A stretch of 58,013 nt of DNA from Alphaproteobacteria bacterium (GTDB lineage: Bacteria > Pseudomonadota > Alphaproteobacteria > Micavibrionales > UBA2020): NCBI GenBank assembly GCA_021413445.1, contig JAIOQI010000008.1:1-58013 (forward strand). Direction: 5' to 3'. The position numbers and the translations under genes were made by a program. This document shows positions 6,851 to 28,867 of the stretch, one piece after another. The notes below the pieces were generated by a model that worked only from the letters and a program-made list of their open reading frames with translations, was not told the DNA's origin and did no database searches. Each line of letters begins with the position of its first letter. The first letter of the stretch is position 1.

Positions 6851-6874
6851 AGGAAGATGGGCACGGAAGACGAC

Positions 6875-7936: not shown

Positions 7937-7955
7937 AAGCATTTGAAATATAAAG

Positions 7956-7963: not shown

Positions 7964-7981
7964 GGTCGTGACTCAGTTTGA
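7964..7981 (+). repeat. Left terminal inverted repeat of the IS1-type element
   Basis: GGTCGTGACTCAGTTTGA, an exact 18-bp inverse of the right end at 10860-10877. Pairing breaks on both sides of this stretch. Confidence 0.9.
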
Positions 7982-7991
7982 TTTTTTCTGT

Positions 7992-8017
7992 AAAAAAAAG
8001 CCCCCTTTCGGGGGCTT
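7992..8017 (-). terminator. Rho-independent terminator of the element's operon
   Basis: AAGCCCCC (7998-8005), a TTTC loop, GGGGGCTT (8010-8017). Read leftward, the 8-bp GC stem is followed by a run of T, so it ends transcripts from the MazF-like gene just inside the left inverted repeat. It would insulate paralog 2 from element transcription. Confidence 0.85.
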
Positions 8018-8141
8018 AAATCTGCGCCACATCTGAGTTTGTAATCACTCTCTGACATGGCGGCCTCCCCACTAAAGGGGCAGGTCTTAGATTGTGGATC
8101 ATCCGAGGATGAGAGCCACTCACACCTCTATTGTATAACTG

Positions 8142-8570: not shown

Positions 8571-8572
8571 TG

Positions 8573-9400: not shown

Positions 9401-9406
9401 ACTTCT

Positions 9407-9440
9407 ATTGTATGCCATAATGCTTGAGCGGTCAAGCATT
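9407..9440 (-). promoter_or_regulatory. Transposase promoter with palindromic operator
   Basis: Read leftward: -35 TTGACC (9435-9430), 17-base spacer, -10 TACAAT (9412-9407), six bases before the ATG at 9400. A perfect inverted repeat AATGCTTGA-N4-TCAAGCATT (9419-9427 and 9432-9440) covers the -35. A protein bound there would block polymerase. It also contains the P63C stop codon. Confidence 0.65.
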
Positions 9441-10461
9441 AGTCATCAAGAAGGTCGAGTTGCATTCCCACCTTAGGGTGTCTTTTTAAAAAGAGTTTTT
9501 TGAATTGGGAAACGGTGTCAGACACGCTCATCAGTGTCATGACATCCTGTACCTGCCGCCGTAGCTTCTCTATGCCATAGCCTTGCGACAAGTGCTGATG
9601 AAATCTTGACTTTCGCGTTCCGTGTTTATCAATTTTTGGGTTGAGGCGGTCAAGTTCCTCAAGAACCGCCCCGTTTTCTAGCGGATGATAAACATACTCT
9701 CTTGTGAAATTTGCGAAATGCTGAGGCCTGTTTTGAATCACAGCCCCTTTCGTCGTCTTTGTTAATTTCTGGCTTCCGTAAAGCCTATTTAGGTCGTCAT
9801 AGTAAGAATCAGGGAACTGCTTTTCCCACTCTCGTTTTTCAACTTCAATATACTGTTGAACGAGGATCCGAAGGGCGTCGGGGCTACGTACCTGTTGGAA
9901 GCCAGTTGCTTCGTCAATTAAAGCTGTAACGCCAACCTTCGAGAAGGCGTTCAGGAGGATCCGCGCCATACCGGCCAGACCTTCTTGGGTTTTTGTTAGT
10001 TTTTTTTCGTCATCCGCGCGGATAATTGCCTTGCAGACATCTACAAGGACATCGGCTTCGTATCCATGAGCCAGATCCTGTGTTAGTGGCTTGAAATTAA
10101 TTGGGCTTTCGATTTTTTTGAGAAGATTTAACCCAAGTTCGGATCCAAGCCCCTTTCTCTGCATAGCGCGCATAAAAACGTTTCCGCCTTGGGATTTCAT
10201 ACCCAAAGCCCGCGCCATTCCTCGTTTGTGAAACACCCTGCGCCCATCTTCAAGGACATAACAATCAAGCTCCAACCCGCCGACCGCCATCTGCCCTTGG
10301 TGGGTAGCTTTTAAGAGGTTAATGTCTTGATCTGCGGATCCATCATCTTTGTGCATCCATCTGGCTTTTGCCGCCAGCGTGGCAATCTCCTTCCGCGCTT
10401 GTCCACTTAGCTGTTCTGCGCGGACTTTCCCACCTTTGCTTTGTCTGGTCTTGTCATTCAT
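9439..10461 (-). CDS. P63C-domain protein (phage/transposon-type, function unknown)
   Basis: A 340-residue basic soluble protein. The N-terminus (SKGGKVRAEQLSGQARKEIA, then AAKARW) resembles the small Lys/Arg-rich protein encoded just upstream. The C-terminal half matches the P63C domain found in phage and mobile-element proteins: WEKQFPDSYYDDLNRLYG, RPQHFANFTREYVYHPL, then LDRLNPKIDKHGTRKSRFHQ. A middle segment VFHKRGMARALGMKSQGGN looks like a KilA/Bro-type entry motif. An AAGGAG Shine-Dalgarno lies nine bases before the ATG. Function is not established; DNA binding is a plausible inference from composition. Confidence 0.75.
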   Translation of the reverse strand: MNDKTRQSKGGKVRAEQLSGQARKEIATLAAKARWMHKDDGSADQDINLLKATHQGQMAVGGLELDCYVLEDGRRVFHKRGMARALGMKSQGGNVFMRAMQRKGLGSELGLNLLKKIESPINFKPLTQDLAHGYEADVLVDVCKAIIRADDEKKLTKTQEGLAGMARILLNAFSKVGVTALIDEATGFQQVRSPDALRILVQQYIEVEKREWEKQFPDSYYDDLNRLYGSQKLTKTTKGAVIQNRPQHFANFTREYVYHPLENGAVLEELDRLNPKIDKHGTRKSRFHQHLSQGYGIEKLRRQVQDVMTLMSVSDTVSQFKKLFLKRHPKVGMQLDLLDD

Positions 10462-10496
10462 GGCTCTTAGCTCCTTATGCTTGCTACATAAGAACC

Positions 10497-10530
10497 ATGT
10501 TAAATGCTTGCTTATTTTTTAGCAAGCATT
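10497..10530 (-). promoter_or_regulatory. P63C gene promoter with palindromic operator
   Basis: Leftward -35 TTGCTA (10525-10520), 17-base spacer, -10 TAACAT (10502-10497). Inverted repeat AATGCTTGCT-N8-AGCAAGCATT (10503-10512, 10521-10530) spans the promoter. Additional ATGCTTGCT half-sites occur at about 10478 and 10552. Confidence 0.55.
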
Positions 10531-10558
10531 AATTTATTTTTTTATATAAAAATGCTTG

Positions 10559-10804
10559 CTATTTGTTTAAGTGTTTGTTTTTCCATCTTTTTTTAGCTGC
10601 TTTTTTAGCGATTTCTTGACGTCTTTTCGGACTTAATGCCTTCGCTCTAGCCTTTCCACCCTTTAGACCTCCGCGCCGTCCTAACTCCACGGCAGCAGGA
10701 TTTTTCGTCTTTGCGTGCTTCTCAGCCGCATCGCCGGTGGCGAGATCAACGATCAGCTTTCCAAGTTGGTTCGGGTCACGCGGTCTGGTGGGTTTTTTGC
10801 TCAT
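10559..10804 (-). CDS. Small Lys/Arg-rich protein (81 aa)
   Basis: An 81-residue highly basic protein: an acidic/neutral N-terminus (PRDPNQLGKLIVDLATGDA), then NPAAVELGRRGGLKGGKARA and repeated lysine clusters ending KKRWKNKHLNK. GRRGGLKGGKAR-type small proteins are widespread beside mobile elements. The family has no firm function, and nucleic-acid binding is inferred from charge. First gene of the element's operon. The ATG at 10804 is only six bases beyond TAAAAT, so the mRNA is predicted to be leaderless. Possible antitoxin or repressor for the element, unproven. Confidence 0.65.
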   Translation of the reverse strand: MSKKPTRPRDPNQLGKLIVDLATGDAAEKHAKTKNPAAVELGRRGGLKGGKARAKALSPKRRQEIAKKAAKKRWKNKHLNK

Positions 10805-10810
10805 ACCCGT

Positions 10811-10847
10811 ATTTTATCGGAAACATCCTTGATCGGTCAAGCATTTA
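10811..10847 (-). promoter_or_regulatory. Promoter and half-palindrome ahead of the element's first gene
   Basis: Leftward TTGACC (10840-10835) and TAAAAT (10816-10811, 18-base spacer; GATAAA at 16 is the alternative). The AATGCTTGACC-GATCAAG sequence repeats the operator seen at 9419-9440, with an imperfect second arm. Confidence 0.5.
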
Positions 10848-10859
10848 AAGGCTTGAATT

Positions 10860-10877
10860 TCAAACTGAGTCACGACC
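10860..10877 (-). repeat. Right terminal inverted repeat of the IS1-type element
   Basis: TCAAACTGAGTCACGACC, the exact reverse complement of the left end, lying 16 bases before the promoter of the third ankyrin-nucleotidyltransferase paralog. Confidence 0.9.
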
Positions 10878-10885
10878 ATAATCTG
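10878..10885. repeat. Right copy of 8-bp target-site duplication
   Basis: ATAATCTG, identical to 7956-7963. Removing the element and one copy restores a continuous short intergenic region ahead of the TTGACA promoter at 10893. Confidence 0.85.
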
Positions 10886-10892
10886 ATATTTG

Positions 10893-10920
10893 TTGACATA
10901 ACACACAATTAAACTATTAT
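10893..10920 (+). promoter_or_regulatory. Sigma70 promoter of ankyrin-nucleotidyltransferase paralog 3
   Basis: TTGACA (10893-10898), 16-base spacer, TATTAT (10915-10920). The TTGACATAACAC beginning is shared with the promoter at 5727. The transposon inserted just upstream and left it intact. Confidence 0.65.
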
Positions 10921-10961
10921 CTGTTTGAATTTTATAGAAAACAATACGAAGGACTGTATCC

Positions 10962-12047
10962 GTGGCGTTACCCGGCAAAGATCCATTTGATTATAGCGGT
11001 GAGAACCTGCCGCATGGCGTTTCCTTGTCCGAAGAGGTCATGGATGGAGACATCCAGGCTGTCAGAAAACGCTTCGACACAGCTTTCTGGCAGGGGTGGA
11101 AGGATCAGCCGGGCTGGAGGCATCTGAAACTCGCGCTGCAGCGCGAAGACAAGCCGATGCTGAAACTGCTGATCACCTGGGGCGCTCGCGCCGCGGATGA
11201 AGACCTGGCAAAGCTCCGTGCCGTGGCGAAAGACAAATACCCGCACTATATCAAGCTGCTGCGCCAGTCCGGGTTGCATCTGCCGGCGGCGGTGGAAAAC
11301 ATTCCCTATGTCGAGCCGGGAGTTCCGGTGCCGGATGCCGGGCTGGTCCCGCAAGAATGGAAGCGGGTTTTGCGGGTGTTTCAGGATAGAGGCGCGGAAG
11401 AAGCGATGATTGCCGGCGGCGCCTTGCGTGACCTGTTCAACAACCGGGCGATCAAGGACGTGGATATTTTTCTCAAGTCACGCGGCAGCGAAAAAAAGAA
11501 CCGCGAATTTCTGAAAGATGTTTTCCACGCGACCGAGTTGAGGTTCACGGGAAACTGCCAGGCGCCCGACTATACTTTATTTGATGAGGATCTTCCCTCT
11601 CCCGATAGGAGCCAGCTGTCCATCAAGTATCAGGCGGGCTACGACACAGTTGTCAAAGAAAGCCGCGTTGAAAGCTGGACGGTGACAAGAAAGGAAACGG
11701 AATACAATGTCGTGTTCGTTGATAACGTGAAGTTTGCTAACGGCGTGATCAGCGATTCCTTATCTGCGGACCGCTTTAGGGGGTTTTTAACAAGCGGCTT
11801 TGACTTAGGGTTGTGCCAGATCGCCTATGACGGCAAAGAAATCTCGCGCACGTCCGCCTACGACAACGACGTAAAATACCGGCAGATCACCCTGCATAAC
11901 CCTAATGATAAAAGCCGGGAACACCTGCAGCGCATTTTTAAAAAATATTCCGATTGGGAATTGTGCGAGAAATCGCGAAGGCTTCTCGCCAAGAAGCCCC
12001 CTTCCGGGGATGAGTGGATGATGTATTCCTGGTCGGGGTGGCGATGA
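10962..12047 (+). CDS. Ankyrin-like / nucleotidyltransferase-signature protein, paralog 3
   Basis: A 361-residue paralog with a GTG start preceded by GAAGGA at good spacing. Same plan as paralog 1: ankyrin-like helices ([13 protein letters not shown]), then [20 protein letters not shown] followed by D-V-DIFL, retaining the GG, RD and both aspartates of the nucleotidyltransferase head. It lies after the transposon with its own promoter. The stop overlaps the preferred rlmN start by four bases (ATGA), so rlmN is probably translated from the same message. Charge pattern and codon use match paralogs 1 and 2. Substrate unknown. Confidence 0.8.
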
Positions 12048-13195
12048 GCGTTTCATCACATGCCGGCAAGTTTTCCGCACCGCCGACGGACGCCGCGGGG
12101 AGGATTCCGCTGATCGGGCTCTCCCTGGCGGAGATGCAGGCGGCGCTGGCGCTGCACAAGCTGCCGGGTTTCCGCGCCAAGCAGGTCTGGCACTGGATTT
12201 ACCAGCGCGGCGCGCGTGATTTCGCCAGCATGGCCAATCTGCCCAAAGAGATGCGCGAGCTGCTGGCGGAAAAATATTCCATCGCGCGCCCGAAAGTCAT
12301 GACCGAGCAGCGCTCCGCAGACGGCACCATCAAATGGCTGCTCTCGATGTCGGACGGGCAGCTGGTCGAGACGGTTTTCATTCCCGAGGCGAAGCGCGGC
12401 ACGCTCTGCGTCTCGTCGCAGGTCGGCTGCACGCTGACCTGCAAGTTCTGCCACACCGGCACCCAGCCGCTGGTGCGCAATCTGGGCGCGCACGAGATAC
12501 TGCAGCAGATCATGCATGCCCGCGACATCTTGGGCGAGTGGCCGCAAAGCGGCGAAAAACAATCCAATGAAGGCCGCGACCTGACCAATATCGTGATGAT
12601 GGGCATGGGCGAGCCGCTGTATAACTACGACAATGTCGCCGGCGCGCTGAAAATCTGCATGGATGCCGACGGCCTGGCGATTTCCAAGCGCCGCATCACC
12701 CTGTCCACCTCCGGCGTGGTGCCGCAGATCCGCCAGTGCGGCGAAGAGCTGGGCGTCAACCTCGCCATTTCCCTGCATGCGACCACCGACGAGCAGCGCT
12801 CGGCGATCATGCCGATCAACAACAAGTACCCGCTGGCCGAACTGCTCGAGGCCTGCCGCACCTATCCCGGCGTCAGCGACATCCGGCGCATTACCTTCGA
12901 ATACGTCATGCTGCAAGACGTGAACGACACCGACGAGGACGCGAAGCGCCTGACGGAACTTTTGCGCGGCATCCCCTGCAAGGTCAACATCATCCCCTTC
13001 AACAGCTGGGAGGGCAGCGGCTTTACCTGCTCGACAAAAGATCGCATCGATGCTTTTGCGCGCATCCTCGAGAATTCCGGCTACGACGCGCCGGTGCGCC
13101 GCGCGCGCGGCCGCGACATCCTCGCCGCCTGCGGCCAGCTCAAGTCCGCCAGCCTGCGGGTCAAAAAAGTTCACGCTGAAATTACGGAGAAGTAA
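12044..13195 (+). CDS. rlmN: Dual-specificity 23S rRNA/tRNA adenine-C2 methyltransferase RlmN
   Basis: Radical-SAM enzyme that methylates A2503 of 23S rRNA and A37 of several tRNAs. About 383 residues from the ATG at 12044. The radical SAM cluster motif CTLTCKFC (C-x3-C-x2-C) follows SSQVG, with [18 protein letters not shown] and NLAISLHA as further family blocks. The conserved C-terminal cysteine region ([25 protein letters not shown]) is present. The start at 12044 overlaps the upstream stop; a longer reading from 12014 would overlap by 34 bases. Convergent with the LNDG operon, overlapping its last codons by 25 bases. Confidence 0.95.
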
Positions 13196-13713
13196 GGACG
13201 GTTTTCAGCCGGGCTTCGGGTTGCCGGTGGCCGGGCCGGGTTTATTGCGGTCCGGCGGCGGCCGGCCGGCGTTTTTCGCGGCAGTTGATAATTGTAATCC
13301 TTTATTTCCTGTTCCGACCAGGTCTTTGTCTTTTCGCCGTTTTTGTAATGCTCCGCACGGGTGAGCCAGCTCCTGTCGTCGAAGATCTGCACCGCCGGCT
13401 CGCCGTTGGCGGCATCGTTGTTGCGGCCATTCGCGAAGTACCCCTTGAATTCAATATTGCCGCTCTTGCTGAACATCTGCTGCGCTGCCTCGCCGTTCGG
13501 GCCGTCGTTGAGTTGGCCGTTTTTGTAACGCTCCACCCATGAGATCGCCCCCTGCGCCTGAGCCAGAAGGGCGGCGACGAGATCTTCCCCGTCCTTGTCC
13601 TGAAGGTCCGGCTGCAGCGCCGCCCGCCTGAAAAATTCCGCAGATTCACCAGACAGCACCACCGTGAGAGCAGCCCCGTCTTTTTTGTATCTGATGCTCA
13701 GCTGTTCCGCCAT
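13171..13713 (-). CDS. Cytoplasmic-type LNDG-repeat protein, fourth gene of operon
   Basis: A 180-residue protein from the ATG at 13713, four bases after the upstream stop. The N-terminal domain (about 1-60) is shared by all four operon members: [26 protein letters not shown], then [15 protein letters not shown]. Two repeat units follow ([20 protein letters not shown]). The C-terminal 40 residues are basic and proline-rich ([20 protein letters not shown]). No signal peptide or membrane segment. The last 25 bases overlap the convergent rlmN gene. Function unknown. Confidence 0.8.
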
Positions 13714-13717
13714 TTTT

Positions 13718-14227
13718 TCACCCAATCTTTGCGCCGCCCGGTCCGGGCTTTTTGCCCTCCGGTTGCGGCTTGCCGGCGTTTTTTTGCGCCAGCCGGTACA
13801 TATAGTCGTCCCGTTCCTGTCCGGAGAGTTCCTTGACCCGCTCGCCGTTCTTGTAGGAAACGGCGTGGATGAGCCGGTTCCGGTCATCGAACATCTGCAT
13901 CGCCGGTTCGCCGTTGACGCCGTCGTTAAGGCGGCCGTCCTGAAAATGCTTGGCAGTGATGATCTTGCCGCTGTCGCTGAATACCTGCATGGCGGGCTCG
14001 CCGTTCGCGCCGTCATGGCGCAGCCCGTCCCGGTAACGCTCCACCAGCAGGACATCTTTGGACCTGATATAGGCGATCAGGGCGGCGATCAGCTCCTCGT
14101 CTTTTTTATCGCGGATGTTTTCCTGCTGCGAAGCTTTCGCGAAAATCTCCGGAGATTTGGCGGTCAGGACTACCTTGAAAGCGGTTCCGTCTTTTTGATA
14201 TTCGATTTCCAGGCTACGGCTGTCCAT
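13718..14227 (-). CDS. Cytoplasmic-type LNDG-repeat protein, third gene of operon
   Basis: A 169-residue protein. The shared N-terminal domain reads LEIEYQKDGTAFKVVLTAKS, with DKKDEELIAALIAYI, then VERYRDG opens two clear repeat units (LRHDGANGEPAMQVFSD and LNDGVNGEPAMQMFDD). The tail is Lys/Pro/Gly-rich (KPQPEGKKPGPGG). It begins three bases after the stop of the 14231 gene and ends four bases before the next start, so translation is tightly linked. No signal peptide, unlike the two related genes at 3585-5009. Confidence 0.82.
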   Translation of the reverse strand: MDSRSLEIEYQKDGTAFKVVLTAKSPEIFAKASQQENIRDKKDEELIAALIAYIRSKDVLLVERYRDGLRHDGANGEPAMQVFSDSGKIITAKHFQDGRLNDGVNGEPAMQMFDDRNRLIHAVSYKNGERVKELSGQERDDYMYRLAQKNAGKPQPEGKKPGPGGAKIG

Positions 14228-14230
14228 TTT

Positions 14231-14803
14231 CTACCTTCTCGGCGACCTGGCCTCTTTCTTTGCTTTTGGCGCGACGGGGGCGTGCTTGGCCTGAAACTCC
14301 GCCAGCTCCTGCGCCGTGAACATTTTTGTCTGCTTGTCGTCCCTGTAACGCGCGATATAGATGAAATTGCCGCGGTCGTCGGAAATCTGTTCCGCCGGTT
14401 CGCCGTGTTTGCCGTCGTTGCGCTTGCCGTCCTGGTAATGGGCGATATGCAGGATCTGGCCGCTGTCATTCATTCTCTGGTATGCCGGCTGGCCGGGCCG
14501 CGCCCCGTCGTGGCGCAGGCCGTTCTCGTAAAGGGACATCGACATGCCGCCGTCGGTGAATTCCTGGATGGCCGGTTCGCCATGCGGGCCGTTGTTGCGC
14601 CTGCCGTCCTTATAGCGCTCCACCTTGGAGATCGCGCCCTTGGCGTGCTTCAGCAGCGCCGCGACCAGCTCTTCCCCTTCTTTGTTCCCGATCTCCGGCA
14701 GCGCCTTGGCGTGCGCGAAAAAATCCGTGACCGGCGACGTCAGCACCACTTTGAAGGGGCCTTCGCTGCTGGTGTATTCGATGGATACCTGTTCTCTTGC
14801 CAT
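14231..14803 (-). CDS. Cytoplasmic-type LNDG-repeat protein, second gene of operon
   Basis: A 190-residue protein from the ATG at 14803, which has GGAGAG six bases upstream. The shared domain is VSIEYTSSEGPFKVVLTSPV, then NKEGEELVAALLKHAKGAIS. Three repeat units follow: RNNGPHGEPA, LRHDGARPGQPA with an insertion, and RNDGKHGEPA. The C-terminus is Lys/Ala/Pro-rich. It lies 46 bases downstream of the 14850 gene. Repeat number varies between 2 and 3 across the operon, as expected from unequal exchange among similar units. Confidence 0.82.
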   Translation of the reverse strand: MAREQVSIEYTSSEGPFKVVLTSPVTDFFAHAKALPEIGNKEGEELVAALLKHAKGAISKVERYKDGRRNNGPHGEPAIQEFTDGGMSMSLYENGLRHDGARPGQPAYQRMNDSGQILHIAHYQDGKRNDGKHGEPAEQISDDRGNFIYIARYRDDKQTKMFTAQELAEFQAKHAPVAPKAKKEARSPRR

Positions 14804-19435: not shown

Positions 19436-20641
19436 TTACGAGAGTTTGAAACGAACCCTTACTTGCATGACGATCATAAACCAGATGTAAGAGCTCAATA
19501 AAAGGTGTGCAAATGACAAAGCTTTCACACTAAAATTATTGGGTTGAATATTATCTGTATTGAAAAAGAGGCCAAAAGGCCCTAGCGCATATTTCGCTGC
19601 CATGTAGATTGATGTTACAGAGGGAAATCTTTCATAGGAACAGAGCGCTTGTGCCCACTTCAATTGAAATTCAGCGGAGGTACAATAGAAACCACCGAGA
19701 ATTATATAAAACTCACTAAATGCAATTACAAACAAAACAAGAGAGATTAGCGGTCGCTTAAAATTTCTTCCAAAATCATTGGTTGCCCGATATATGGATG
19801 AGTAAATTTTTTCCAGCCCTCCCTTTAGCCTTACGTTGTGTCGTGCCGATAGTTCATGTGCGTTGAATTCAATCATATTGTAGTCGGAATTCAGTGATAT
19901 CATGATGTGCTTCAGGTGGCTGTAGGCATTTTCAGCATAGTTTGATCGAAAGTCCTTAAAGGTACAATGCCGGAAATCAAAACTTGAACTAAACTCCGAT
20001 TTGAAAAACAAGGGTGCATTTAGAAACACACAGTCACTAAAATTAACAGCATCATTAAATTTACAATCCATCAACCTGAGAGGTGGAGTTTTGTCGGCGG
20101 CGTTACCAAAGATGCAGTTTTCAAAATTAACTGCTTTTTTAAAATGACACTTGATCATTGATATATTTTCAAAGGTAGAGTCTATAAACTCTATCTGGAT
20201 ATTCACCTCTACATGCTTGGAGCTATTTTGGTGATCGAGATTGAAGTTTTGTATTTTAGAATTATTACATACAGCAATATGTTTACAAAAGTTTGGCGCA
20301 CTACTAATTTTCTGGATGTTGCAGCCGGAAAAGCACACAGTGTTAATTTTTGAATTTCCTGCGTCAGCTACAAGAGCATCAAAGGTGCAACGATTGAACT
20401 GTAAGTTCCAAATTAAATCTGGTTTTTCTCTCTGAAATCTTTCTGCAATATAGGCAACAAGATTCTTATCTCCATACTCCGCTTTTCCGGGGACCAATAC
20501 CTTATAAGTATTTAAAAACCGTGCATTTTCAAACAAGAGAAAAATTGGAGCAGTGCTGTCTTCATAAGAGACTGACCTTATAGCCTGTCGTACGAAGTCC
20601 TCTAGTTTTTGTGTATTATCAATAATATGCAGGGAAGTCAT
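19436..20641 (-). CDS. Pentapeptide-like repeat protein with C-terminal membrane segments
   Basis: A 401-residue protein, AT-rich and unlike the GC-rich genes around it. The middle (about 95-250) has loose five-residue periodicity with aromatic and Cys residues (VNFENCIFG, VNFSDCVFLNAP, FDFRHCTFKDF), typical of pentapeptide or right-handed beta-helix repeats. The C-terminus has two hydrophobic segments (SLVLFVIAFSEFYIILGGF and LSFAHLLLSSYIWFMIVMQV) separated by a loop, as in small pore proteins. It lies just outside the left att repeat of the tRNA-Ala island and is probably acquired DNA. Defence or transport roles are conceivable but unproven. Confidence 0.7.
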   Translation of the reverse strand: MTSLHIIDNTQKLEDFVRQAIRSVSYEDSTAPIFLLFENARFLNTYKVLVPGKAEYGDKNLVAYIAERFQREKPDLIWNLQFNRCTFDALVADAGNSKINTVCFSGCNIQKISSAPNFCKHIAVCNNSKIQNFNLDHQNSSKHVEVNIQIEFIDSTFENISMIKCHFKKAVNFENCIFGNAADKTPPLRLMDCKFNDAVNFSDCVFLNAPLFFKSEFSSSFDFRHCTFKDFRSNYAENAYSHLKHIMISLNSDYNMIEFNAHELSARHNVRLKGGLEKIYSSIYRATNDFGRNFKRPLISLVLFVIAFSEFYIILGGFYCTSAEFQLKWAQALCSYERFPSVTSIYMAAKYALGPFGLFFNTDNIQPNNFSVKALSFAHLLLSSYIWFMIVMQVRVRFKLS

Positions 20642-20703
20642 TTTATATTAAGGCCAATTTTTATTTCGCCAAGTGTGAACTGGGCACCTATCGATTTAAT
20701 AAT

Positions 20704-20752
20704 ATGGTGGAGATGATCGGGATCGAACCGACGACCTCTTGCATGCCATGCA
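20704..20752 (-). repeat. attL: 3' fragment of tRNA-Ala
   Basis: Direct repeat of 28791-28839 with two mismatches. It contains the tRNA T-arm, anticodon-arm 3' side and CCA-end sequence, but the 5' half of a tRNA does not follow, so it is not a functional tRNA gene. Confidence 0.85.
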
Positions 20753-21291: not shown

Positions 21292-21702
21292 CTATTTATG
21301 AGCGGCAAGGAATTTCTCAATCTTTCTCACAACCGAACTTATATTTTTAATTTCGCATCCCCATACGGTTAACACTTCCCATCCCTCTCGTTTCAAGGCT
21401 CGCGTACTTCTTCTATCGCGCTGTTTGTTGGCTAGTAACTTGGGAGTCCAATAAGATTTTCTACTTTTCGGAGGCCGACCTTTTTTGCAGTTGTGACCGT
21501 GCCAGAAACACCCATGAATAAAGATAACCTTTCTTTTCTTCGTAAAGACTATATCGGGTCGCCCCGGAAGACCGGGATAGTTCTTCCGGAAGCGATAGCC
21601 TTTTCGGTGTAATAGACTGCGAACAATTCTTTCGGGTAATGTGTCTTTTGTTCCTACTGAAGACATGATAGCACTTCGTTTTTCCTTCGATACCCTATCC
21701 AT
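21292..21702 (-). CDS. vsr: Very short patch repair (Vsr) endonuclease
   Basis: Vsr-family endonuclease that nicks beside T-G mismatches formed when 5-methylcytosine deaminates, protecting genomes that carry a Dcm-like methylase. About 136 residues from the ATG at 21702, with GGAAAG upstream; a longer reading would need a TTG start. Family motifs: DRVSKEKRSAIMSSVGTKDT, LPERIVRSLLHRKGYRFRKN, GRPDIVF with the catalytic Asp, and IFIHGCFWHGHNC, where Cys/His coordinate zinc. It is divergent from the C5 methyltransferase, 54 bases away, the pairing expected for function. Confidence 0.93.
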   Translation of the reverse strand: MDRVSKEKRSAIMSSVGTKDTLPERIVRSLLHRKGYRFRKNYPGLPGRPDIVFTKKRKVIFIHGCFWHGHNCKKGRPPKSRKSYWTPKLLANKQRDRRSTRALKREGWEVLTVWGCEIKNISSVVRKIEKFLAAHK

Positions 21703-21719
21703 AATACAGAACTTTCCGA

Positions 21720-21748
21720 TCGACAAAAAATGAAACTGCGTGTATCCT
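21720..21748 (+). promoter_or_regulatory. Promoter of the C5 methyltransferase, near-leaderless
   Basis: TCGACA (21720-21725), 17-base spacer, TATCCT (21743-21748), seven bases before the ATG at 21756. No Shine-Dalgarno fits before the ATG. Confidence 0.5.
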
Positions 21749-21755
21749 CTTAATT

Positions 21756-22952
21756 ATGAAGGAAGAAAATAGAAACATCATCGATCTTTTTTGCGGTTGC
21801 GGCGGTTTTAGTTTAGGCGCGTATCTTGCTGGTTACAAAAGTGTTCTATCAGTAGATATTGATACTACTCTTTCTTCTGCTTATACGCGAAATTTTTCAA
21901 GTTCAAAATTGCTCAATTGCGATCTGGCAAAGGTTAAGACCGAGAAACTTCTTGAAGAAGCGGGTACTGAAAAAATCTTCGGAGTAATTGGCGGCCCACC
22001 TTGTCAAGGATTTAGTACGATGGGTAAACGCGATGCTGACGACCCACGTAATGAACTTATCAAGCACTACTTCAAACACATCGCGAATATCAAGCCAGCT
22101 TTCTTCGTGATGGAGAACGTACCCGGTCTTTTAAATGGCTTTATGAGAGATAAGCTAGACAAGCAGCTTAAAATCCTCTCTGAGGAATACACGATCATTG
22201 GCCCTGTTATAATTAGCGCGTCCAAGTTAGGCGCAGCGACTAAGCGGGAAAGAGTGATTATTATCGGTTACGATAAAAACCGTATAAATGATTTCTCTCA
22301 ACGGGATGTTTTGTCCTTATCAGCTAACCGCGTGAATACAGTTGAAGATGCGATTAACGATCTTCCGATGCCGATAGACTGTGAAGATGGTAACTACGGC
22401 TGGGCAAAAATAGACGGAAGAAGAAAAGTCAGCGACTATGCGACAATAGCTAGGCAGACCCCTCCTGAAGGATGCGGGTGGGATTTCGCTCTCGAAATGT
22501 TCGATAAAGGATACGTATCCGGCTTCATGAATACCATTCATACGAAATCCGTTCAGAAGAGATACGAGAAGGTAGAGCAAGGAGCGCAGGACGCAACCAG
22601 CAAAGCTGTAAAATTACGTTGGGAAGGACAATGCCCTACGCTTCGTGCCGGTACGGGCAGCGATAAAGGAAGCTACCAAGCGGTAAGACCCCTTCATCCA
22701 GAACAAGGAAGGGTAATTACCGTCAGAGAGGCCGCTAGATTACAAGGCTTTCCCGATTGGTTTACATTCCACCCAACAAAATGGCACAGTTTCAGAATGA
22801 TCGGAAACAGCGTCTCACCCTATCTCTCTAAAGGCATACTCGAATTTATCAATTCCAAGACTAAAGGAAATGAGAAAAATGTTTCTTCATTGCGCGAGGA
22901 ACGGTCTTCGAGTCCGACAAAAAAACGTACGGCGAATAGGCTCTATGCTTGA
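21756..22952 (+). CDS. DNA (cytosine-C5) methyltransferase
   Basis: A 398-residue Dcm-type enzyme that puts 5-methylcytosine in a specific DNA site. Motif I IIDLFCGCGGFSLGAYLAGY, motif IV GGPPCQGFSTMG with the catalytic cysteine near residue 85, motif VI MENV, and motifs IX-X VREAARLQGFPDWF and MIGNSVSP are all present. The target-recognition region is about 210-300. The recognition site cannot be read. The last 30 residues are charged and overlap the convergent gene at 22861 by 92 bases. Partner of vsr on the opposite strand; no classical restriction gene is adjacent. Confidence 0.95.
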   Translation: MKEENRNIIDLFCGCGGFSLGAYLAGYKSVLSVDIDTTLSSAYTRNFSSSKLLNCDLAKVKTEKLLEEAGTEKIFGVIGGPPCQGFSTMGKRDADDPRNELIKHYFKHIANIKPAFFVMENVPGLLNGFMRDKLDKQLKILSEEYTIIGPVIISASKLGAATKRERVIIIGYDKNRINDFSQRDVLSLSANRVNTVEDAINDLPMPIDCEDGNYGWAKIDGRRKVSDYATIARQTPPEGCGWDFALEMFDKGYVSGFMNTIHTKSVQKRYEKVEQGAQDATSKAVKLRWEGQCPTLRAGTGSDKGSYQAVRPLHPEQGRVITVREAARLQGFPDWFTFHPTKWHSFRMIGNSVSPYLSKGILEFINSKTKGNEKNVSSLREERSSSPTKKRTANRLYA

Positions 22953-23919
22953 TATAGCTGCTTAACGATCCTAGAGATTCATCATCGTTGCTGGCTAATT
23001 TAAACCCAAGAGCGGTGTGTACTTGGAGCGCATCGCTTTTGTGCTTCTTAATCAATTTGTCTATACGCTGTCTTTCTTTGATAGAAAGCTCTGGCACGGC
23101 AATTTCGTGCCACTTCATCCACGTTTCCGAAAAGAACGGCCACTTTTTAACTTTTGATTTTTTAAAGAAGCCAGCCATATCTTTTTCGTTAAGGGCGACG
23201 ACGGTTACAGTCATCATTTCATGAAAGCCATCGCTATACCTCAATACGCTTAGAGGCATGTATTTTTTTCTATAGTCCCCATTAGTAGCATCCGATGCGA
23301 CTTTTTCTAAGGCCAACAATAGGGCCTTTGCAAGACCGTCATTGTTCATTTGAGAGCTATCTAGCTCCCCCTCGATGAACAAATCCCCGAGATCGTCCTT
23401 CAATTTGTTAAAGGTCTGCGTCTGATACGCTGGCGTATCTTGATCCTTCAAGCGTTGATAAACCGTATTAATGCTGGTGTTCAGGGTAATTTTCGCTACA
23501 TCGCCGGTATTCATGGCCCTCAGCAATTGACCAAACTCTCTTATCTGGTGCTGCCGTGGCGAAGCCTTAGCAAAGTCAAGCCATACGATCGCATTGGTGC
23601 ATTTAAAATCGCTTATCCATGAATCGAAGTTCGTCACGAATCTACTGCTATCCATCTGTTCACAACGAATACCCTTAACCGGCATGTTGAATAATTGGCG
23701 CGTATGGATGTACGGCATAGACTCTACGGACAGGAGTTTTTTTATACCGAGTCTGACATTAACGAGTTTTGCATCGGCAAGAAACGCTCCTCCTAAGGAA
23801 GCGTATAAATAAGAATCCAGCTTCTTCCACTTGGAGAGTTTACCAAGTAATTCGCAAAATAACTCTCTTTCAATGAATTTATTCGGCCTTAAATGATAAG
23901 GAACGCTATCGCCACTCAT
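22861..23919 (-). CDS. Unknown island protein, possibly degenerate methyltransferase fold
   Basis: A 352-residue soluble protein translated two bases after the GHKL ATPase stop, hence the same operon. The N-terminal half has an alternating strand/helix pattern: YLYASLGGAFLADAKLVN, KKLLSVESMPYIHTRQLFN and AIVWLDFAK. This resembles a Rossmann-type methyltransferase with an acidic residue after strand 2 (SVE). The glycine loop is not canonical, so the assignment is tentative. The C-terminal half is Lys-rich and helical. Its last 30 codons overlap the convergent methyltransferase gene. Coupling to the ATPase points to a joint complex. Function unknown. Confidence 0.7.
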   Translation of the reverse strand: MSGDSVPYHLRPNKFIERELFCELLGKLSKWKKLDSYLYASLGGAFLADAKLVNVRLGIKKLLSVESMPYIHTRQLFNMPVKGIRCEQMDSSRFVTNFDSWISDFKCTNAIVWLDFAKASPRQHQIREFGQLLRAMNTGDVAKITLNTSINTVYQRLKDQDTPAYQTQTFNKLKDDLGDLFIEGELDSSQMNNDGLAKALLLALEKVASDATNGDYRKKYMPLSVLRYSDGFHEMMTVTVVALNEKDMAGFFKKSKVKKWPFFSETWMKWHEIAVPELSIKERQRIDKLIKKHKSDALQVHTALGFKLASNDDESLGSLSSYIKHRAYSPYVFLSDSKTVPRAMKKHFSHFL

Positions 23920-23921
23920 GA

Positions 23922-25340
23922 TTATTTGGCCTTCTTAAGAAATTCGTCGAAGCATCTTTCGCCTACTTCGCTTGCCGTTATATCTTCAGCTTTAATGCCC
24001 TTATATAAAATCTTAGTCACAGTGTTAATCTCATCTTCCGTTTTCCTAAACTGAATTAGTTTCGATTTTATACTCTCTACGGGCAACGGAAGATTAGGCA
24101 CGTATTTGCGGGCATCCTTAGCGTATCCTTTCAGCTTTCTTATGTCCGTCCACCCCTTGTTAGACTTCATGCGCGGGTTTTCGACCAGAGATTTAGACTC
24201 CAAGCCCTTAAACTTTTCAGTTACCTCTTTTGTGCGTGATTTCCACTTATTCGTGAAACCCGTAAACTGCTTAAGCCCTTCCGACATAAAATCTAAAGTT
24301 GTCAAATAGACTTCAGAATCCGTATCGATACCTCTTTTTGTGGTATTTAGAGGGAGCTGTTCGGATTCATTGCTTTTAAAAGTAACGATCCCCGAGATAG
24401 CAATAAACTGGTTGTGGTAACGAGGAACAGAGCCTCTGCCCCAGCCAGTCTTCATCGACTTATCCGCATAAAGAACAACCCGATCATTACATACGACAGT
24501 CCAACCTGCCGTTTCGCTACTTCTCGGTTCGTCAAGTTCGTCTTCAATTTCACTATCAGCGGCTAACCCTCTATATAGCCCCACAGCCAGATTAACTTGA
24601 ACGCCCTTAATTTTTGCCGTGAATAAGTAAGGCTCGATTAAAGCCTGTTTCGCGTGAGTTGCGGATGGCGTGAGTAGCGCAAGTCTGACCGGGGCGATTA
24701 CTTTATCGTTCAACGTAACCTGAAAACCTTTACTTATTATCAGCGAAAAAAGACGTGCTATATCATGCTCCAACGCGCGGATGAAGCTAGGCTCTCCAAA
24801 GTGGTGAGAAACACCATCATGAATGTCCGTGACATGAATTTTTGTTCCATTCTCAGGCAATATACTCTGGCTTTTATCGACTAATTTTAATTCCCAGGTT
24901 TTTTCGTTAGTTAACCAGCTTGGCGTAATATCTACCTGATAAGCACCGCCTTTATAGCGAGAAACGACTTCGCAGTTCCTCCCCATTTTAAAAATGGCTC
25001 GTTTCATGCCAATGCCATACATCCCCACCGTTGCAAGATTTTCATCCCGAGCCTCAGTTGTCTTTCCAAGACGAAATGCAGACTTGGTAGCGATTTCCTT
25101 CGTTATACCGCCGCAATTATCTACAATGATAAATTCTTTCTTTTTGATTGTGATCGAGGCTTTGAAACCTGCATAGGGTAAGTTCTTATTCGCAGGGTCT
25201 TTCTTTTCCAGTTCGCGTAAAACTCCATCGATGCAATTGTCCAAAAGATCGAGAATGGCATCTTTAAGATCAATGTCTCGCGTCAGCATATCCACAAAAA
25301 ATCGTTTCGTAGGTGAGCCATCGATCTTCTGTTGTGACAT
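23922..25340 (-). CDS. GHKL (HSP90/MutL/MORC-like) ATPase
   Basis: A 472-residue protein with a GHKL ATPase N-terminal domain. The N-box ILDLLDNCID is near residue 35, VDNCGGI (DxGxG-type) near 78 and GMYGIGMKRAIFKMG (G2 lid) near 107. A second domain, about 215-360, holds VVCNDRVVLYADKSMKTGWG and an SxxLPLNTTKRG-like transducer element with the lysine that contacts phosphate in MutL-type ATPases. Prokaryotic MORC/MutL-like ATPases are known next to restriction-modification genes. Here it heads an operon with the 352-residue unknown, facing a C5 methyltransferase and Vsr. A DNA-clamp role in defence is the natural inference. Confidence 0.88.
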   Translation of the reverse strand: MSQQKIDGSPTKRFFVDMLTRDIDLKDAILDLLDNCIDGVLRELEKKDPANKNLPYAGFKASITIKKKEFIIVDNCGGITKEIATKSAFRLGKTTEARDENLATVGMYGIGMKRAIFKMGRNCEVVSRYKGGAYQVDITPSWLTNEKTWELKLVDKSQSILPENGTKIHVTDIHDGVSHHFGEPSFIRALEHDIARLFSLIISKGFQVTLNDKVIAPVRLALLTPSATHAKQALIEPYLFTAKIKGVQVNLAVGLYRGLAADSEIEDELDEPRSSETAGWTVVCNDRVVLYADKSMKTGWGRGSVPRYHNQFIAISGIVTFKSNESEQLPLNTTKRGIDTDSEVYLTTLDFMSEGLKQFTGFTNKWKSRTKEVTEKFKGLESKSLVENPRMKSNKGWTDIRKLKGYAKDARKYVPNLPLPVESIKSKLIQFRKTEDEINTVTKILYKGIKAEDITASEVGERCFDEFLKKAK

Positions 25341-25512: not shown

Positions 25513-26160
25513 TTATTTAACAAACAAGAGAAAGGCCAACGCATCCAGCCTGATCCACTGCCGTTTGTTCTTCACAGTGACGCGAATAGCTGGATAAGTG
25601 CGCCCCCCTGACCCTCGTTTCTCTACGGGATATTCCTTTGCCCCGGCGACGACAACAGCTTCTTTGCTGATTGAAATCTTGCCTTTGAATGTGTGCACAG
25701 CCATCGCAACTCTATTGTGAGCCTTCAGCCTTTTTCTGAAGCCGGAAAGAGTCTTGCAGCCATGAAGGTCTATCGGGCTTGCCATGTTGCCCTGAATACG
25801 AGCAGCGACTTTCTCTACTACAGCAGGATGCAGCTTCTTCTGCCAGATGGTCGGACGCAACTCAAAGTCAGGAAATTGAGGTTGTATCTCTCGCACAATT
25901 TCGTTTTGTTTTTTCTTTCCTGTCTTATCGAACACCATTACATCGGCAATTCTGAGAATGGCTTTTGTGAAACCCGGCGGATTGCGAACAAAGGCTGCGT
26001 TCAGAGGTTTTACAGCCAAGTCCTCATTGCCAGGATTTTGCTTATGCCACTCCTTTACTTTTTCAGTAGCCCCTTCATTGGCTGCCTTGCGCAGTGCAGT
26101 CAGTTTTTCTTTTTTCTTGGTATATGCACCCTGTTGTGGGGTCTTGGGCTGTTCAGTCAT
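25513..26160 (-). CDS. Hypothetical island protein (215 aa)
   Basis: A 215-residue basic soluble protein. Lys-rich N-terminus (AYTKKKEKLTALRKAANEGA), then helical segments (VVREIQPQFPDF-like region and PAVVEKVAARIQG), and a C-terminal beta-rich stretch (ISISKEAVVVAGAKEYPVEK, RTYPAIRVTVKNKRQWIRLD). No membrane segment and no family I recognise. It stands alone, 172 bases upstream of the GHKL ATPase gene in the same orientation. The AT-rich 26161-26435 region presumably supplies its promoter. Confidence 0.6.
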   Translation of the reverse strand: MTEQPKTPQQGAYTKKKEKLTALRKAANEGATEKVKEWHKQNPGNEDLAVKPLNAAFVRNPPGFTKAILRIADVMVFDKTGKKKQNEIVREIQPQFPDFELRPTIWQKKLHPAVVEKVAARIQGNMASPIDLHGCKTLSGFRKRLKAHNRVAMAVHTFKGKISISKEAVVVAGAKEYPVEKRGSGGRTYPAIRVTVKNKRQWIRLDALAFLLFVK

Positions 26161-26435: not shown

Positions 26436-26960
26436 TTATGCTGCCCGAGGCTTATCCCGCATGATTGTCGCAACACATTCTGCCGCCACATCAAGCCCCT
26501 TTGAGGCATCTTTTGTCCATACAGGATACCACTCCCGAAAGGCTTGTTTCCCTCCTAGCTCCATGGCTTCCCCAGTAAGGGGATCGCGAATGGTTTTCTG
26601 AACAGCAGCCATAGCACCCAATGCCTCTCCCTCGCTAAAGCCCAGCTTCTCTAATGCCGCTAACATGGAGGGCTTAATCATGAACTTGGGTATATTAAGA
26701 ACCGATACAGCTTCCGAAGCTGCTTCCATGCAATACAAGGCAACCTTGCCTTGCTCTTCGGGTACAATCACTCCATGTTCAATGGCGTTGAAACTGTAAA
26801 GAGCCATTTTCGTCTGATGGACAAACTCGGATATTACGGTTTCCAAACCTTGCAGTGTGATTGGGTTGTTTCTTATATACCGATGAATGCATGCAGCTTT
26901 GATACGTTTCCAAACACCCCAAGCCACTGCAATGGCCAGCACCCATAAGATGACTTCCAT
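26436..26960 (-). CDS. Membrane-anchored hypothetical protein
   Basis: A 174-residue protein from the ATG at 26960, directly after the lipoprotein gene's stop. One N-terminal hydrophobic segment (VILWVLAIAVAWGVW) is followed by a basic turn, so it is probably a single-pass inner-membrane anchor with a cytoplasmic helical domain. The rest contains LEKLGFSEGEALGAMAAVQK and AFREWYPVWTKDASKG. I recognise no family. The start at 27011 would overlap the upstream gene and lacks a ribosome site. Second gene of an operon with the lipoprotein. Confidence 0.6.
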   Translation of the reverse strand: MEVILWVLAIAVAWGVWKRIKAACIHRYIRNNPITLQGLETVISEFVHQTKMALYSFNAIEHGVIVPEEQGKVALYCMEAASEAVSVLNIPKFMIKPSMLAALEKLGFSEGEALGAMAAVQKTIRDPLTGEAMELGGKQAFREWYPVWTKDASKGLDVAAECVATIMRDKPRAA

Positions 26961-26961
26961 T

Positions 26962-27426
26962 TTATTTTCTCGGTTCTTTGGATTGGTTTGCTTCCGGCTC
27001 TGTATCGTCAATCAGCTTGCGCACCCTATCTACATATTTATCGCAACCAAACCCACTACCTTCAAAATTAGCATCAACGACCTTCTCCTTGCTGGTGACA
27101 AGTCGTATTTTGCAGTCTCCGCTAAAGGTGACTGGGGTGTTCTCTCGGATGGTGGTGCTGTTGCTGGCCACCCTTCCATTGGGTGCATATGTTGTAATGT
27201 ATTGCGGCCTGTAGCTGGTGACCGTACCTGTACTGGTAAAGCTATCCCTCCACACATAGACCTTTTTGCCAGCAACAGTTACTTCGTCATCTGGGTAACC
27301 AAGATATTTGATTGCATAGGTAATATCTTTGCCAACAAAGCGAGGCACCCCCGTTTGAAGCGTGGAGAAGGTGGAAGTACAGGCAGATAAAAGCAAAACA
27401 GTAATAAGGACAAACGATAAGCGCAT
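26962..27426 (-). CDS. Predicted lipoprotein
   Basis: A 154-residue exported protein. The signal MRLSFVLITVLLLSAC ends in a clear lipobox (LLSAC), so the mature N-terminus is a lipidated cysteine. The ATG at 27426 has GGAG six bases upstream; a GTG at 27438 is the alternative. Mature part: GKDITYAIKYLGYPDDEVTV, then VYVWRDS, a Thr/Ser-rich stretch and two cysteines (GDCKIRL, GFGCDKYV) that could form a disulfide. The K-Y-L-G-Y-P-x-D start resembles SmpA/OmlA-like small outer-membrane lipoproteins, but only weakly. Operon with 26436. Confidence 0.65.
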   Translation of the reverse strand: MRLSFVLITVLLLSACTSTFSTLQTGVPRFVGKDITYAIKYLGYPDDEVTVAGKKVYVWRDSFTSTGTVTSYRPQYITTYAPNGRVASNSTTIRENTPVTFSGDCKIRLVTSKEKVVDANFEGSGFGCDKYVDRVRKLIDDTEPEANQSKEPRK

Positions 27427-27447
27427 AACATTCTCCACATGGGCAGT

Positions 27448-27687: not shown

Positions 27688-28683
27688 TTATCCTAGCTTG
27701 TCCACAAGGCTTTCCGGCTTTAAATGCGTGTATCGGAACAGCATCCGGTAATCCCGATGCCCTGAAATCAAGGCTACTTCTGGCACAGATAAACCACGCT
27801 CCACGAATCGGCTAATTGCTTCATGACGTAGATCATGAAAATGGAGGTCATGTAATCCAGCACGATCTCGCAGTCTCTCCCACGCTTGCTGAAATCCATT
27901 TCCGGTCAAAGGAAAGACGCGCTTATGCTTCTTGCCCTTTCTCTTTGTCTGCTCATGCAGTACCGCAAGAGCATAGCTGGAAAGTGGAATTGTTCGTGCA
28001 TGACCATTCTTTGTAACGGGGATATGCAACGTTTTGGCATTGAAGTCTATATCCTTCCATTGCATTTGCAGTATCTCCCCTCTACGCATGCCAGTTGCAA
28101 TAGCAAAGCGAATGATCGGCATGACATAGGGATTGTGAGTTTGTGCAAGGGCATCCTGCAAAGCCGTATATTCATCCTCTGATAAACGCCTGTTACGCCC
28201 TGCTTGTGGCTTTATCTTGGCAATCTTATTCAAGGGGTTCTCCCTGATCGGGATATTCCATTCACGCTCTGCCGTATCAAAGGCATGTTTAAGGATGGCA
28301 AGATCGCGCCTGACTGTTCCGGCCTTTACTTCTTTCAGCCTCATATCCCGATAGTCACAAATCTTTCCGGTTGTGATCTCTGCCAGTGATAGGCTTGCGA
28401 ATGGTTGTTTGATTAAGTTGTCGAGGACATACTTTTCGCTATTGTAGCTACGTTTCTTAATGCTGATTTCGTCCCGATACCGTATCAGAAGGTCTTTAAC
28501 CTTATGTTGGTCGAGAACCTTTAAGGGCGTAGGTAATGCCCCACGGTCTGCCTGTGTCTCCATGAACCGCGCCCATTCTTCGGCATCGGAGTGTTTGTGG
28601 AATGATCGGCTGATAGGTGCAAAGCCTTTACGCCTGATCTGTACTTCGTATTTGCCAGTTGGTCTTTTTCTGATGGTTGCCAT
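27688..28683 (-). CDS. int: Tyrosine recombinase (island integrase)
   Basis: A 331-residue site-specific tyrosine integrase that would insert and excise the island at tRNA-Ala. The N-terminal arm-binding region (GKYEVQIRRKGFAPISRSF) and SAM-like core-binding domain (about 60-165) precede the catalytic domain. Its residues are Arg in ATGMRRGEIL, Lys in VTKNGHARTIPL, HDLRHEA, GHRDYRML and the nucleophile Tyr in FRYTH. Length and order are intact, so it may be active. It lies 108 bases from the intact tRNA, transcribed away from that end, the classic position for an integrase of a tRNA-targeting element. Confidence 0.93.
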   Translation of the reverse strand: MATIRKRPTGKYEVQIRRKGFAPISRSFHKHSDAEEWARFMETQADRGALPTPLKVLDQHKVKDLLIRYRDEISIKKRSYNSEKYVLDNLIKQPFASLSLAEITTGKICDYRDMRLKEVKAGTVRRDLAILKHAFDTAEREWNIPIRENPLNKIAKIKPQAGRNRRLSEDEYTALQDALAQTHNPYVMPIIRFAIATGMRRGEILQMQWKDIDFNAKTLHIPVTKNGHARTIPLSSYALAVLHEQTKRKGKKHKRVFPLTGNGFQQAWERLRDRAGLHDLHFHDLRHEAISRFVERGLSVPEVALISGHRDYRMLFRYTHLKPESLVDKLG

Positions 28684-28723: not shown

Positions 28724-28791
28724 TGGTTTTTGGCTATTTCTTATTTCTCAGGTCTAGTCCGTTTAACACCTGTATTGCAACAGGTTGGTAA

Positions 28792-28867
<76 letters not shown>

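What the first reader, a model, noticed from the sequence alone, without database searches (positions are those of the whole stretch)
21292..25340. Possible defence system: Vsr + C5 methyltransferase + GHKL (MORC-like) ATPase + unknown partner
The methyltransferase and Vsr are divergent. The GHKL ATPase and a 352-residue protein form a coupled operon converging on the methyltransferase. No classical restriction endonuclease is present. Prokaryotic GHKL/MutL-MORC ATPases are known beside modification genes, but this composition, with an unassigned possibly methyltransferase-fold partner as the candidate effector, is not one I can match to a named system.
Basis: partly seen in the sequence, partly recalled or inferred. 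Interest (0 to 1): 0.65.

Follow-up and report, generated by a model that had tools for sequence, protein, structure and literature searches.

The report
Mobile methylase-plus-MORC-like ATPase defence cassette
An 8-kb mobile DNA island carries a DNA methylase next to an inseparable gene pair (a MORC/SMCHD1-like ATPase and a methyltransferase-fold partner) that recurs across many bacterial phyla beside DNA methylases, including inside the known DISARM anti-phage system, which suggests a little-noticed defence module without an ordinary restriction enzyme.

Summary
At 21292-25340 lie Vsr (-), a complete C5 DNA methyltransferase (+), a 352-aa protein (-) and a 472-aa GHKL ATPase (-). They are cargo of an 8.1-kb integrated island bounded by a 50-bp tRNA-Ala duplication (20702-20752 / 28789-28839), with its own integrase. 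The "unknown" partner is Pfam PF20553 (Methyltransf_35, E 1e-65). Its confident AlphaFold model is a class I nucleic-acid-methyltransferase fold, and the SAM-site residues are conserved. The ATPase is MORC/SMCHD1-like. The two genes form an obligate pair: adjacent in 83 of 84 resolvable loci from many phyla. About 95% of the pairs sit beside DNA modification genes: 57 with a C5 methylase (Vsr in about 40%), and 23 inside class 1 DISARM operons between drmMI and drmA. PADLOC and NCBIfam have no model for either protein. Most C5-type loci show no restriction enzyme in the operon. A Pf phage (PfAC20) carries only GHKL, Methyltransf_35 and C5 in a defence-cargo slot, and was published as an "incomplete" R-M. 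GHKL ATPases beside methylases and Vsr were noted in 2008 (MORC/paraMORC). The obligate methyltransferase-fold partner and its DISARM placement appear new. Defence activity and mechanism are inferred, not shown.

The parts
20702..20752 (.). attL: duplicated 3' part of tRNA-Ala (50 bp, 2 mismatches to attR)
21292..21726 (-). Vsr very-short-patch-repair endonuclease (144 aa from TTG; an ATG start lies 8 codons in)
   Evidence: Pfam PF03852 2.3e-29, TIGR00632, 1cw0
21756..22952 (+). DNA C5-cytosine methyltransferase (398 aa), catalytic motifs intact
   Evidence: PF00145 8.4e-56, 3g7u 1e-83, motifs
22861..23919 (-). MT35: Methyltransf_35 family protein (352 aa), class I nucleic-acid MTase fold; 3' end overlaps the C5 gene tail to tail by 92 nt
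   Evidence: PF20553 1.1e-65; AF2 pLDDT 93; VIA Z 14-16 to RlmI/RlmJ/Trm1-type RNA MTases
23922..25340 (-). GHKL (MORC/SMCHD1-like) ATPase with S5 domain (472 aa), first gene of the pair
   Evidence: PF13589 3.7e-10; AF2 pLDDT 91.5; top Foldseek hit SMCHD1 ATPase module; profile hits only MORC3 in PDB
25513..26160 (-). 215-aa island ORF, no family found; not conserved with the pair elsewhere
26436..27438 (-). two small island ORFs (191 and 158 aa), no convincing family
27688..28683 (-). tyrosine-recombinase integrase of the island
   Evidence: PF00589 1.1e-33; 68% identical integrase at the same tRNA in G003
28789..28839 (.). attR inside the intact tRNA-Ala gene
28792..28867 (-). tRNA-Ala (ggc), integration target
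   Evidence: ARAGORN

Best explanation
The locus is a mobile, restriction-modification-like defence cassette. Its core is three genes: a C5 DNA methyltransferase that marks resident DNA, and an obligate two-protein complex made of a MORC/SMCHD1-like GHKL ATPase and a methyltransferase-fold protein (MT35). Vsr is an optional add-on that repairs the T:G mismatches left when 5-methylcytosine deaminates. I propose that GHKL and MT35 act together on DNA. MT35 reads or modifies nucleic acid through its SAM/base-binding pocket, and ATP-driven dimer closure of the GHKL protein turns recognition of unmarked incoming DNA into its restriction, by clamping it and either blocking it or handing it to a nuclease. 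In DISARM the same pair would work the same way on top of DrmA/DrmB. Shown here: the genes, the pairing, the association with modification genes, the folds and motifs, and the mobility. Inferred: a physical complex, action against phage or plasmid DNA, and self-marking by the C5 enzyme. Speculative: which step MT35 performs and whether DNA is cut.
For: Obligate pairing: 83 of 84 resolvable GHKL-MT35 pairs lie -148 to +13 bp apart on one strand; the exception is split by an IS66 transposase. Evolutionary distances of the two proteins correlate at r=0.97 (0.85 within C5-type loci), against 0.25 for GHKL and C5. Context: 56 C5-type, 23 DISARM, 5 other; one of the 5 (L048) also has a C5. In an independent HMM census all 8 MT35-positive genomes have a DNA MTase next to it. 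Defence setting: inside class 1 DISARM; in the cargo slot of Pf phage PfAC20, where sister Pf phages carry IetAS, Avs and TA systems (PMC11878078); neighbours include AbiE, AbiT, NERD-UvrD, MkoB, PD-T4-5 and HNH genes. Mobility: 50-bp att repeats, integrase, and different cargo or empty site at the same tRNA in sister genomes. Enzyme integrity: N-box, G1, G2 and the S5 lysine conserved in 72 GHKLs; MT35 G43 93%, E/D66 74/75, D115 74/75, W113 75/75.
Against: There is no experiment. There is no recognisable nuclease in the pair, and most C5-type loci lack an adjacent restriction enzyme, so the destructive step is not identified. The GHKL family has Asp (71/72) where MutL, Hsp90 and VcSduA use a catalytic Glu. 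A near-identical DISARM operon (G327, DrmA 84%, DrmD 90%) lacks the pair, so DISARM can do without it. Two Ca. Parabeggiatoa loci keep the pair with no C5 or DISARM gene within about 7 kb.
Confidence: 0.5

Rival explanations
1. The pair is a second modification unit, not a restricting one: MT35 is an active nucleic-acid methyltransferase that adds another mark, with GHKL as its ATP-dependent partner; cutting is done by DISARM proteins, by HNH/REase neighbours, or by an unlinked enzyme.
For: MT35 keeps a SAM-binding signature and a motif-IV-like W-x-D-[YF], and matches RlmJ (an m6A MTase) and Trm1; in DISARM the pair sits directly after the DrmMI methylase gene; some loci have a nuclease: HNH_2 (L030, L032), a type II REase (L015), NOV_C (L056).
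Against: Most C5-type loci have no adjacent nuclease gene, which would leave modification with nothing to protect from; PfAC20 has only the pair, C5 and a 105-aa ORF.
Confidence: 0.25
2. The GHKL protein is a private MutL for very-short-patch repair of the C5 methylase's deamination damage, i.e. the four genes are a DNA-repair set.
For: In E. coli, MutL interacts functionally with Vsr (Monastiriakos 2004, cited in PMC2292703); Vsr and C5 are both present in the window.
Against: Vsr is absent within 4 kb in 34 of 56 C5-type loci although the pair is kept; the pair is built into DISARM; MT35 has no role in this scheme; the closest structures are SMCHD1/MORC and Hsp90.
Confidence: 0.08
3. An orphan or decaying restriction-modification locus: only the methylase and Vsr are useful, and the rest is passenger DNA on a mobile island.
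For: No classical REase; the island is mobile and cargo differs between sister genomes.
Against: All four proteins are kept at 65-74% identity with catalytic motifs in another genus of the family; the pair is conserved over many phyla with strong co-evolution.
Confidence: 0.07

Closest known systems
MORC/paraMORC-associated restriction-modification neighbourhoods (Iyer, Abhiman & Aravind 2008, PMC2292703)
   Same: GHKL+S5 ATPase, cytosine methylase, Vsr, laterally mobile; the 2008 paper already links these classes (paraMORC1 also with HNH) and proposes DNA looping
   Different: Its text does not mention an obligate methyltransferase-fold partner, and DISARM was not known then; our GHKL lacks the extra domains named for paraMORC3-5 and the exact subfamily could not be assigned
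HEF_HK / Response_reg_2 two-gene element (Bellieny-Rabelo 2021, PMC8011034)
   Same: GHKL gene coupled to a Rossmann-like partner gene, next to C5 methylase, often with Vsr
   Different: Our proteins match neither PF19191 nor PF19192; the partner is a methyltransferase fold, not a receiver-like domain
Class 1 DISARM (drmD, drmMI, drmA, drmB, drmC)
   Same: 23 relatives of the pair lie inside this operon between drmMI and drmA; methylation-dependent self/non-self logic
   Different: The window has no Drm genes; a close DISARM operon lacks the pair; NCBI and PADLOC do not name the pair as Drm proteins
VcSduA (Shedu type I-D, paraMORC3; PMC12137116)
   Same: GHKL ATPase used in a proven anti-phage system; ATP-site mutation abolishes defence
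   Different: VcSduA carries its own PD-(D/E)xK nuclease domain; our GHKL has only about 90 residues after the S5 region and no nuclease match
Eukaryotic SMCHD1 / MORC ATPases
   Same: Best fold match of the ATPase (6mw7) and only sequence-profile match in PDB (MORC3); also work with cytosine-methylated chromatin
   Different: No hinge, CW or coiled-coil domains; bacterial operon setting

Membership tests
MORC/paraMORC GHKL ATPases | GHKL ATP-binding motifs plus S5 domain with conserved basic residue | tested here: met
   D31/N35, D74xGG, GxYGxGMK and K335 invariant or nearly so in 72 sequences; AF2 model matches GHKL+S5 modules of SMCHD1 and Hsp90; profile hit to MORC3 E 0.002
MORC/paraMORC GHKL ATPases | assignment to one named subfamily (MORC-specific motif, paraMORC1-5 signatures) | tested here: inconclusive
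   No nuclease or TIR domain by Pfam speaks against paraMORC3/4; no ExxxH was apparent on reading the S5-region consensus; the paraMORC1 and MORC signatures were not available as models
HEF_HK / Response_reg_2 element | PF19191 in the GHKL protein and PF19192 in the partner | tested here: not met
   No match at E<=1
DISARM | DrmA helicase and DrmB (DUF1998) core | tested here: not met
   Not among the window ORFs or Pfam matches of the island; own genome has no DrmD above cut-off. In 23 related loci the pair is inside a DISARM operon
Classical type II restriction-modification | C5 (or other) DNA methyltransferase | tested here: met
Classical type II restriction-modification | cognate restriction endonuclease in the locus | tested here: not met
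   No nuclease other than Vsr recognised in the island by Pfam, PADLOC or NCBIfam; an unrecognised REase among the small ORFs is not excluded
Shedu / VcSduA | PD-(D/E)xK (DUF4263) domain on the GHKL protein | tested here: not met
   Pfam scan shows HATPase only
Any PADLOC-DB 2.0 or NCBIfam 20 defence system (incl. MADS, Mza) | profile match of the GHKL or MT35 protein | tested here: not met
   No PADLOC match for either at E<=1; NCBIfam MzaB only E 0.086, 11 bits against a 850 cut-off
Methyltransf_35 (PF20553) | profile match above gathering score over the full length | tested here: met
   222.5 bits against 27, residues 1-328
Anti-phage defence system | measured protection against phage or plasmid entry | not testable with these tools

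The most novel reading that the evidence does not exclude
A bacterial counterpart of MORC/SMCHD1 silencing: the C5 methylase marks self DNA, and the GHKL ATPase with its SAM-binding partner topologically clamps and compacts (or covalently marks) unmarked incoming DNA so that it cannot be expressed or replicated, without cutting it. This would be a nuclease-free, methylation-licensed restriction that has also been built into DISARM as an extra layer.
Probability: 0.15. Interest if true: 0.85.

Novelty: new variant of a known kind. Interest (0 to 1): 0.62.

Why it matters
The pair is a recurrent module (MT35 in about 1.3% of sampled Pseudomonadota species, and pairs in many other phyla) that current defence-annotation libraries do not name, so loci that carry it are read as 'orphan methylase' or 'incomplete R-M', as happened with phage PfAC20. 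It adds an unnamed component to a subset of class 1 DISARM operons. If the pair restricts DNA without its own nuclease, it gives a tractable bacterial system for asking what MORC/SMCHD1-type ATPases do to methylated versus unmethylated DNA, a long-open question.

Tried and rejected
(1) The drop in DrmMI identity (66% against 84-90% for DrmA/D/B) between a pair-less and a pair-bearing DISARM looked like coupling of the pair to DrmMI; it is C-terminal target-recognition-domain swapping that also occurs among pair-bearing operons. Rejected. (2) A conserved restriction enzyme as third partner: adjacent ORFs fall into unrelated families (HNH_2, type II REase, NOV_C, HhH-GPD, alpha/beta hydrolase), each in few loci. 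(3) Membership in the HEF_HK/Response_reg_2 element: no Pfam match; PF19192 proteins were found in 3 of 190 alphaproteobacteria but not compared further. (4) Close relatives in viral contigs with a single-sequence query: none. (5) E. coli complete genomes, megablast with the PfAC20 operon: none. (6) A single-sequence C5 search in the genomes behind the DISARM loci was too insensitive to tell whether a C5 lies upstream. (7) The MADS-like hits (mad3, mad8) among neighbours could not be traced to their loci. (8) The careful tree did not finish; the quick tree puts 23 DISARM pairs and two C5 pairs in one supported group, consistent with one entry into DISARM and later exits.

Full report
What is there. 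The four ORFs exist at the stated coordinates. Vsr (21292-21726, -) and the C5 methyltransferase (21756-22952, +) are divergent, 29 bp apart. The GHKL gene (25340-23922, -) runs into the 352-aa gene (23919-22861, -) with 2 bp between them. The 352-aa gene converges on the methylase with a 92-nt tail-to-tail overlap. C5 and Vsr keep their active-site motifs. No restriction enzyme is recognised among the other island ORFs.

The cargo of a mobile island. GC falls from about 60% to 40-45% over this stretch. A 50-bp direct repeat with 2 mismatches lies at 20702-20752 and 28789-28839; the right copy is the 3' part of an intact tRNA-Ala gene (28792-28867), and a tyrosine recombinase gene (27688-28683) abuts it. 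In the sister genome G003 the same tRNA-Ala carries a 68%-identical integrase and two att-like repeats 5 kb apart around different cargo. G004 and G005 have a single att-like copy at the site. The site is therefore a cargo-swapping integration hotspot, and the four genes are most of this island's coding content.

The pair is obligate. A scan of 84,980 species genomes with the GHKL alignment gave 80 loci. Adding loci from plasmids, phages and the held genomes gave 88 loci; 84 had a resolvable GHKL-MT35 pair, and 83 of these are adjacent on one strand within -148 to +13 bp. The one exception, on S. meliloti pSymA, is split by an IS66 transposase. Pairwise identities of the two proteins correlate at r=0.97 (0.85 within the C5-type loci), against r=0.25 between GHKL and the C5 methylase: the two proteins travel as one unit, while methylases are exchanged. 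An independent census with the Pfam model found MT35 in 5 of 385 alphaproteobacteria and 5 of 398 Pseudomonadota. GHKL is adjacent in every case where the contig allows, and a DNA methylase is next to all eight distinct loci.

Two contexts. Of the 84 pairs, 56 have a C5 methylase within 4 kb (22 of them also Vsr), 23 are inside class 1 DISARM operons, and 5 were first left over. One of the 5 (L048) turned out to have an adjacent C5 and two others end at contig edges. Only two Ca. Parabeggiatoa loci have full flanks without a recognised modification gene. In DISARM the order is drmD-drmMI-GHKL-MT35-drmA-drmB-drmC, confirmed by NCBIfam DrmA, DrmB and DrmD models. The quick tree places 23 DISARM pairs and two C5 pairs in one supported group. 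A DISARM operon in G327 with DrmD 90%, DrmA 84% and DrmB 88% identical to the Microvirga one lacks the pair; there drmMI runs straight into drmA, with C5 and Vsr upstream of drmD. The pair is thus an accessory cassette of DISARM, and a core element in the C5 context. Other defence genes are frequent neighbours; no background rate was computed for this.

A minimal natural unit. The 13.6-kb Pf phage PfAC20 carries exactly GHKL, MT35, C5 and a 105-aa ORF at its left end. The authors of that genome note that Pf accessory genes are mostly anti-phage systems, and they list PfAC20 as having an incomplete system, a lone cytosine methyltransferase (PMC11878078). The present data suggest that the operon may be complete.

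Proteins. MT35 is predicted with mean pLDDT 93. Its best solved relatives are RNA methyltransferases of class I fold (1wxw Z 15.9 over 167 residues at 2.6 A; 3axs Trm1 Z 14.9 over 222; RlmJ Z about 14). The family keeps a glycine after beta-1 (G43, 93%), an acidic residue at the end of beta-2 (E/D66, 74/75) and an invariant W113-x-D115-[YF] at the motif IV position. SAM binding is therefore likely, and catalysis possible; both are inferences from sequence and fold. A conserved N-terminal R11-x-x-K14-x-x-x-R18 and an R74-Q75-x-F77-N78 motif have no assigned role. The GHKL protein is predicted at pLDDT 91.5. Its top Foldseek match is the SMCHD1 ATPase module, and its profile hits only MORC3 in PDB sequences (E 0.002). 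All ATP-site motifs are conserved, with Asp instead of Glu at the usual catalytic position in 71 of 72 sequences (position assigned by reading the N-box against MutL from memory).

Most likely working. The C5 methylase marks resident DNA; the GHKL-MT35 complex polices DNA that lacks the mark; Vsr repairs deamination damage of 5-methylcytosine where it is present. The pair as restricting or sensing module is the simplest reading of three facts: it is the constant element; it occurs with two unrelated kinds of modification enzyme; and most C5-type loci contain no other candidate effector. What happens to the DNA is open. Iyer et al. 2008 (PMC2292703) proposed DNA looping for such ATPases. A GHKL-nuclease fusion of the same broad class (VcSduA, paraMORC3) is a proven defence protein whose ATP-site mutant is inactive (PMC12137116). 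I give 0.5 to this explanation, 0.25 to a second-modification role for the pair, 0.08 to private mismatch repair and 0.07 to a decaying orphan locus.

Novelty. GHKL ATPases near cytosine methylases, Vsr and HNH genes are known since 2008, and a parallel GHKL plus receiver-like element since 2021. I found no description of the Methyltransf_35 partner: the library search found no paper naming PF20553. I also found no description of the pair as a DISARM module; the original DISARM paper was not held, so this last point is not certain. I file it as a new variant of a known kind.

Noticed in passing
window 22861-22952 and L006 7466-7557: C5 and MT35 genes overlap tail to tail by 92 nt in both f1-family genomes; 14 of the 19 convergent loci abut or overlap (-91 to +7 bp). 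The C5 C-terminal tail is encoded antisense to the MT35 C-terminus.
   Followed up: partly
window 19436-20641: Pentapeptide-repeat protein of low GC just outside attL; may be a remnant of an earlier insertion at the same tRNA hotspot.
   Followed up: no
L149 (G003) 3544-8600: Same tRNA-Ala site in a sister genome holds a 5-kb island with a 68% identical integrase and different cargo, including 512-aa and 244-aa proteins without Pfam match.
   Followed up: partly
L024 10975-12720, L029 11761-13452, L037 959-2692, L041 195-1892, L069 10886-12628: A second, longer GHKL protein (563-581 aa) sits in five C5-type loci; the C-terminal part of the L024 copy resembles PD-Lambda-5_A. Possibly the MORC plus paraMORC1 pairing noted in 2008.
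   Followed up: partly
L046 6071-6787: HhH-GPD glycosylase gene overlapping the C5 gene start in Singulisphaera, possibly replacing Vsr in repair of 5mC deamination.
   Followed up: no
L004 (PP058144.1) 280-4035: Pf filamentous phage PfAC20 carries GHKL-MT35-C5 as cargo; published as an incomplete R-M with a lone methylase.
   Followed up: yes
L129 (G327) 3-13985: DISARM operon C5-Vsr-drmD-drmMI-drmA-drmB without the pair, otherwise 84-90% identical to pair-bearing operons in DrmD, DrmA and DrmB.
   Followed up: yes
L003 and other DISARM loci, drmMI gene: DrmMI N-terminal two thirds is 83-95% identical between operons (L129 vs L003) while the C-terminal recognition part drops to 17-49%: target-recognition-domain swapping in DISARM.
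   Followed up: yes
L134 (G688) 6780-14352: Divergent variant: MT35-GHKL facing an operon with a SNF2-type helicase, a NOV_C protein and an N6/N4 methylase; an undescribed arrangement.
   Followed up: partly
window 8001-12000 and 54001-57000: Further low-GC stretches (about 45-52%) in the window, possibly other islands.
   Followed up: no
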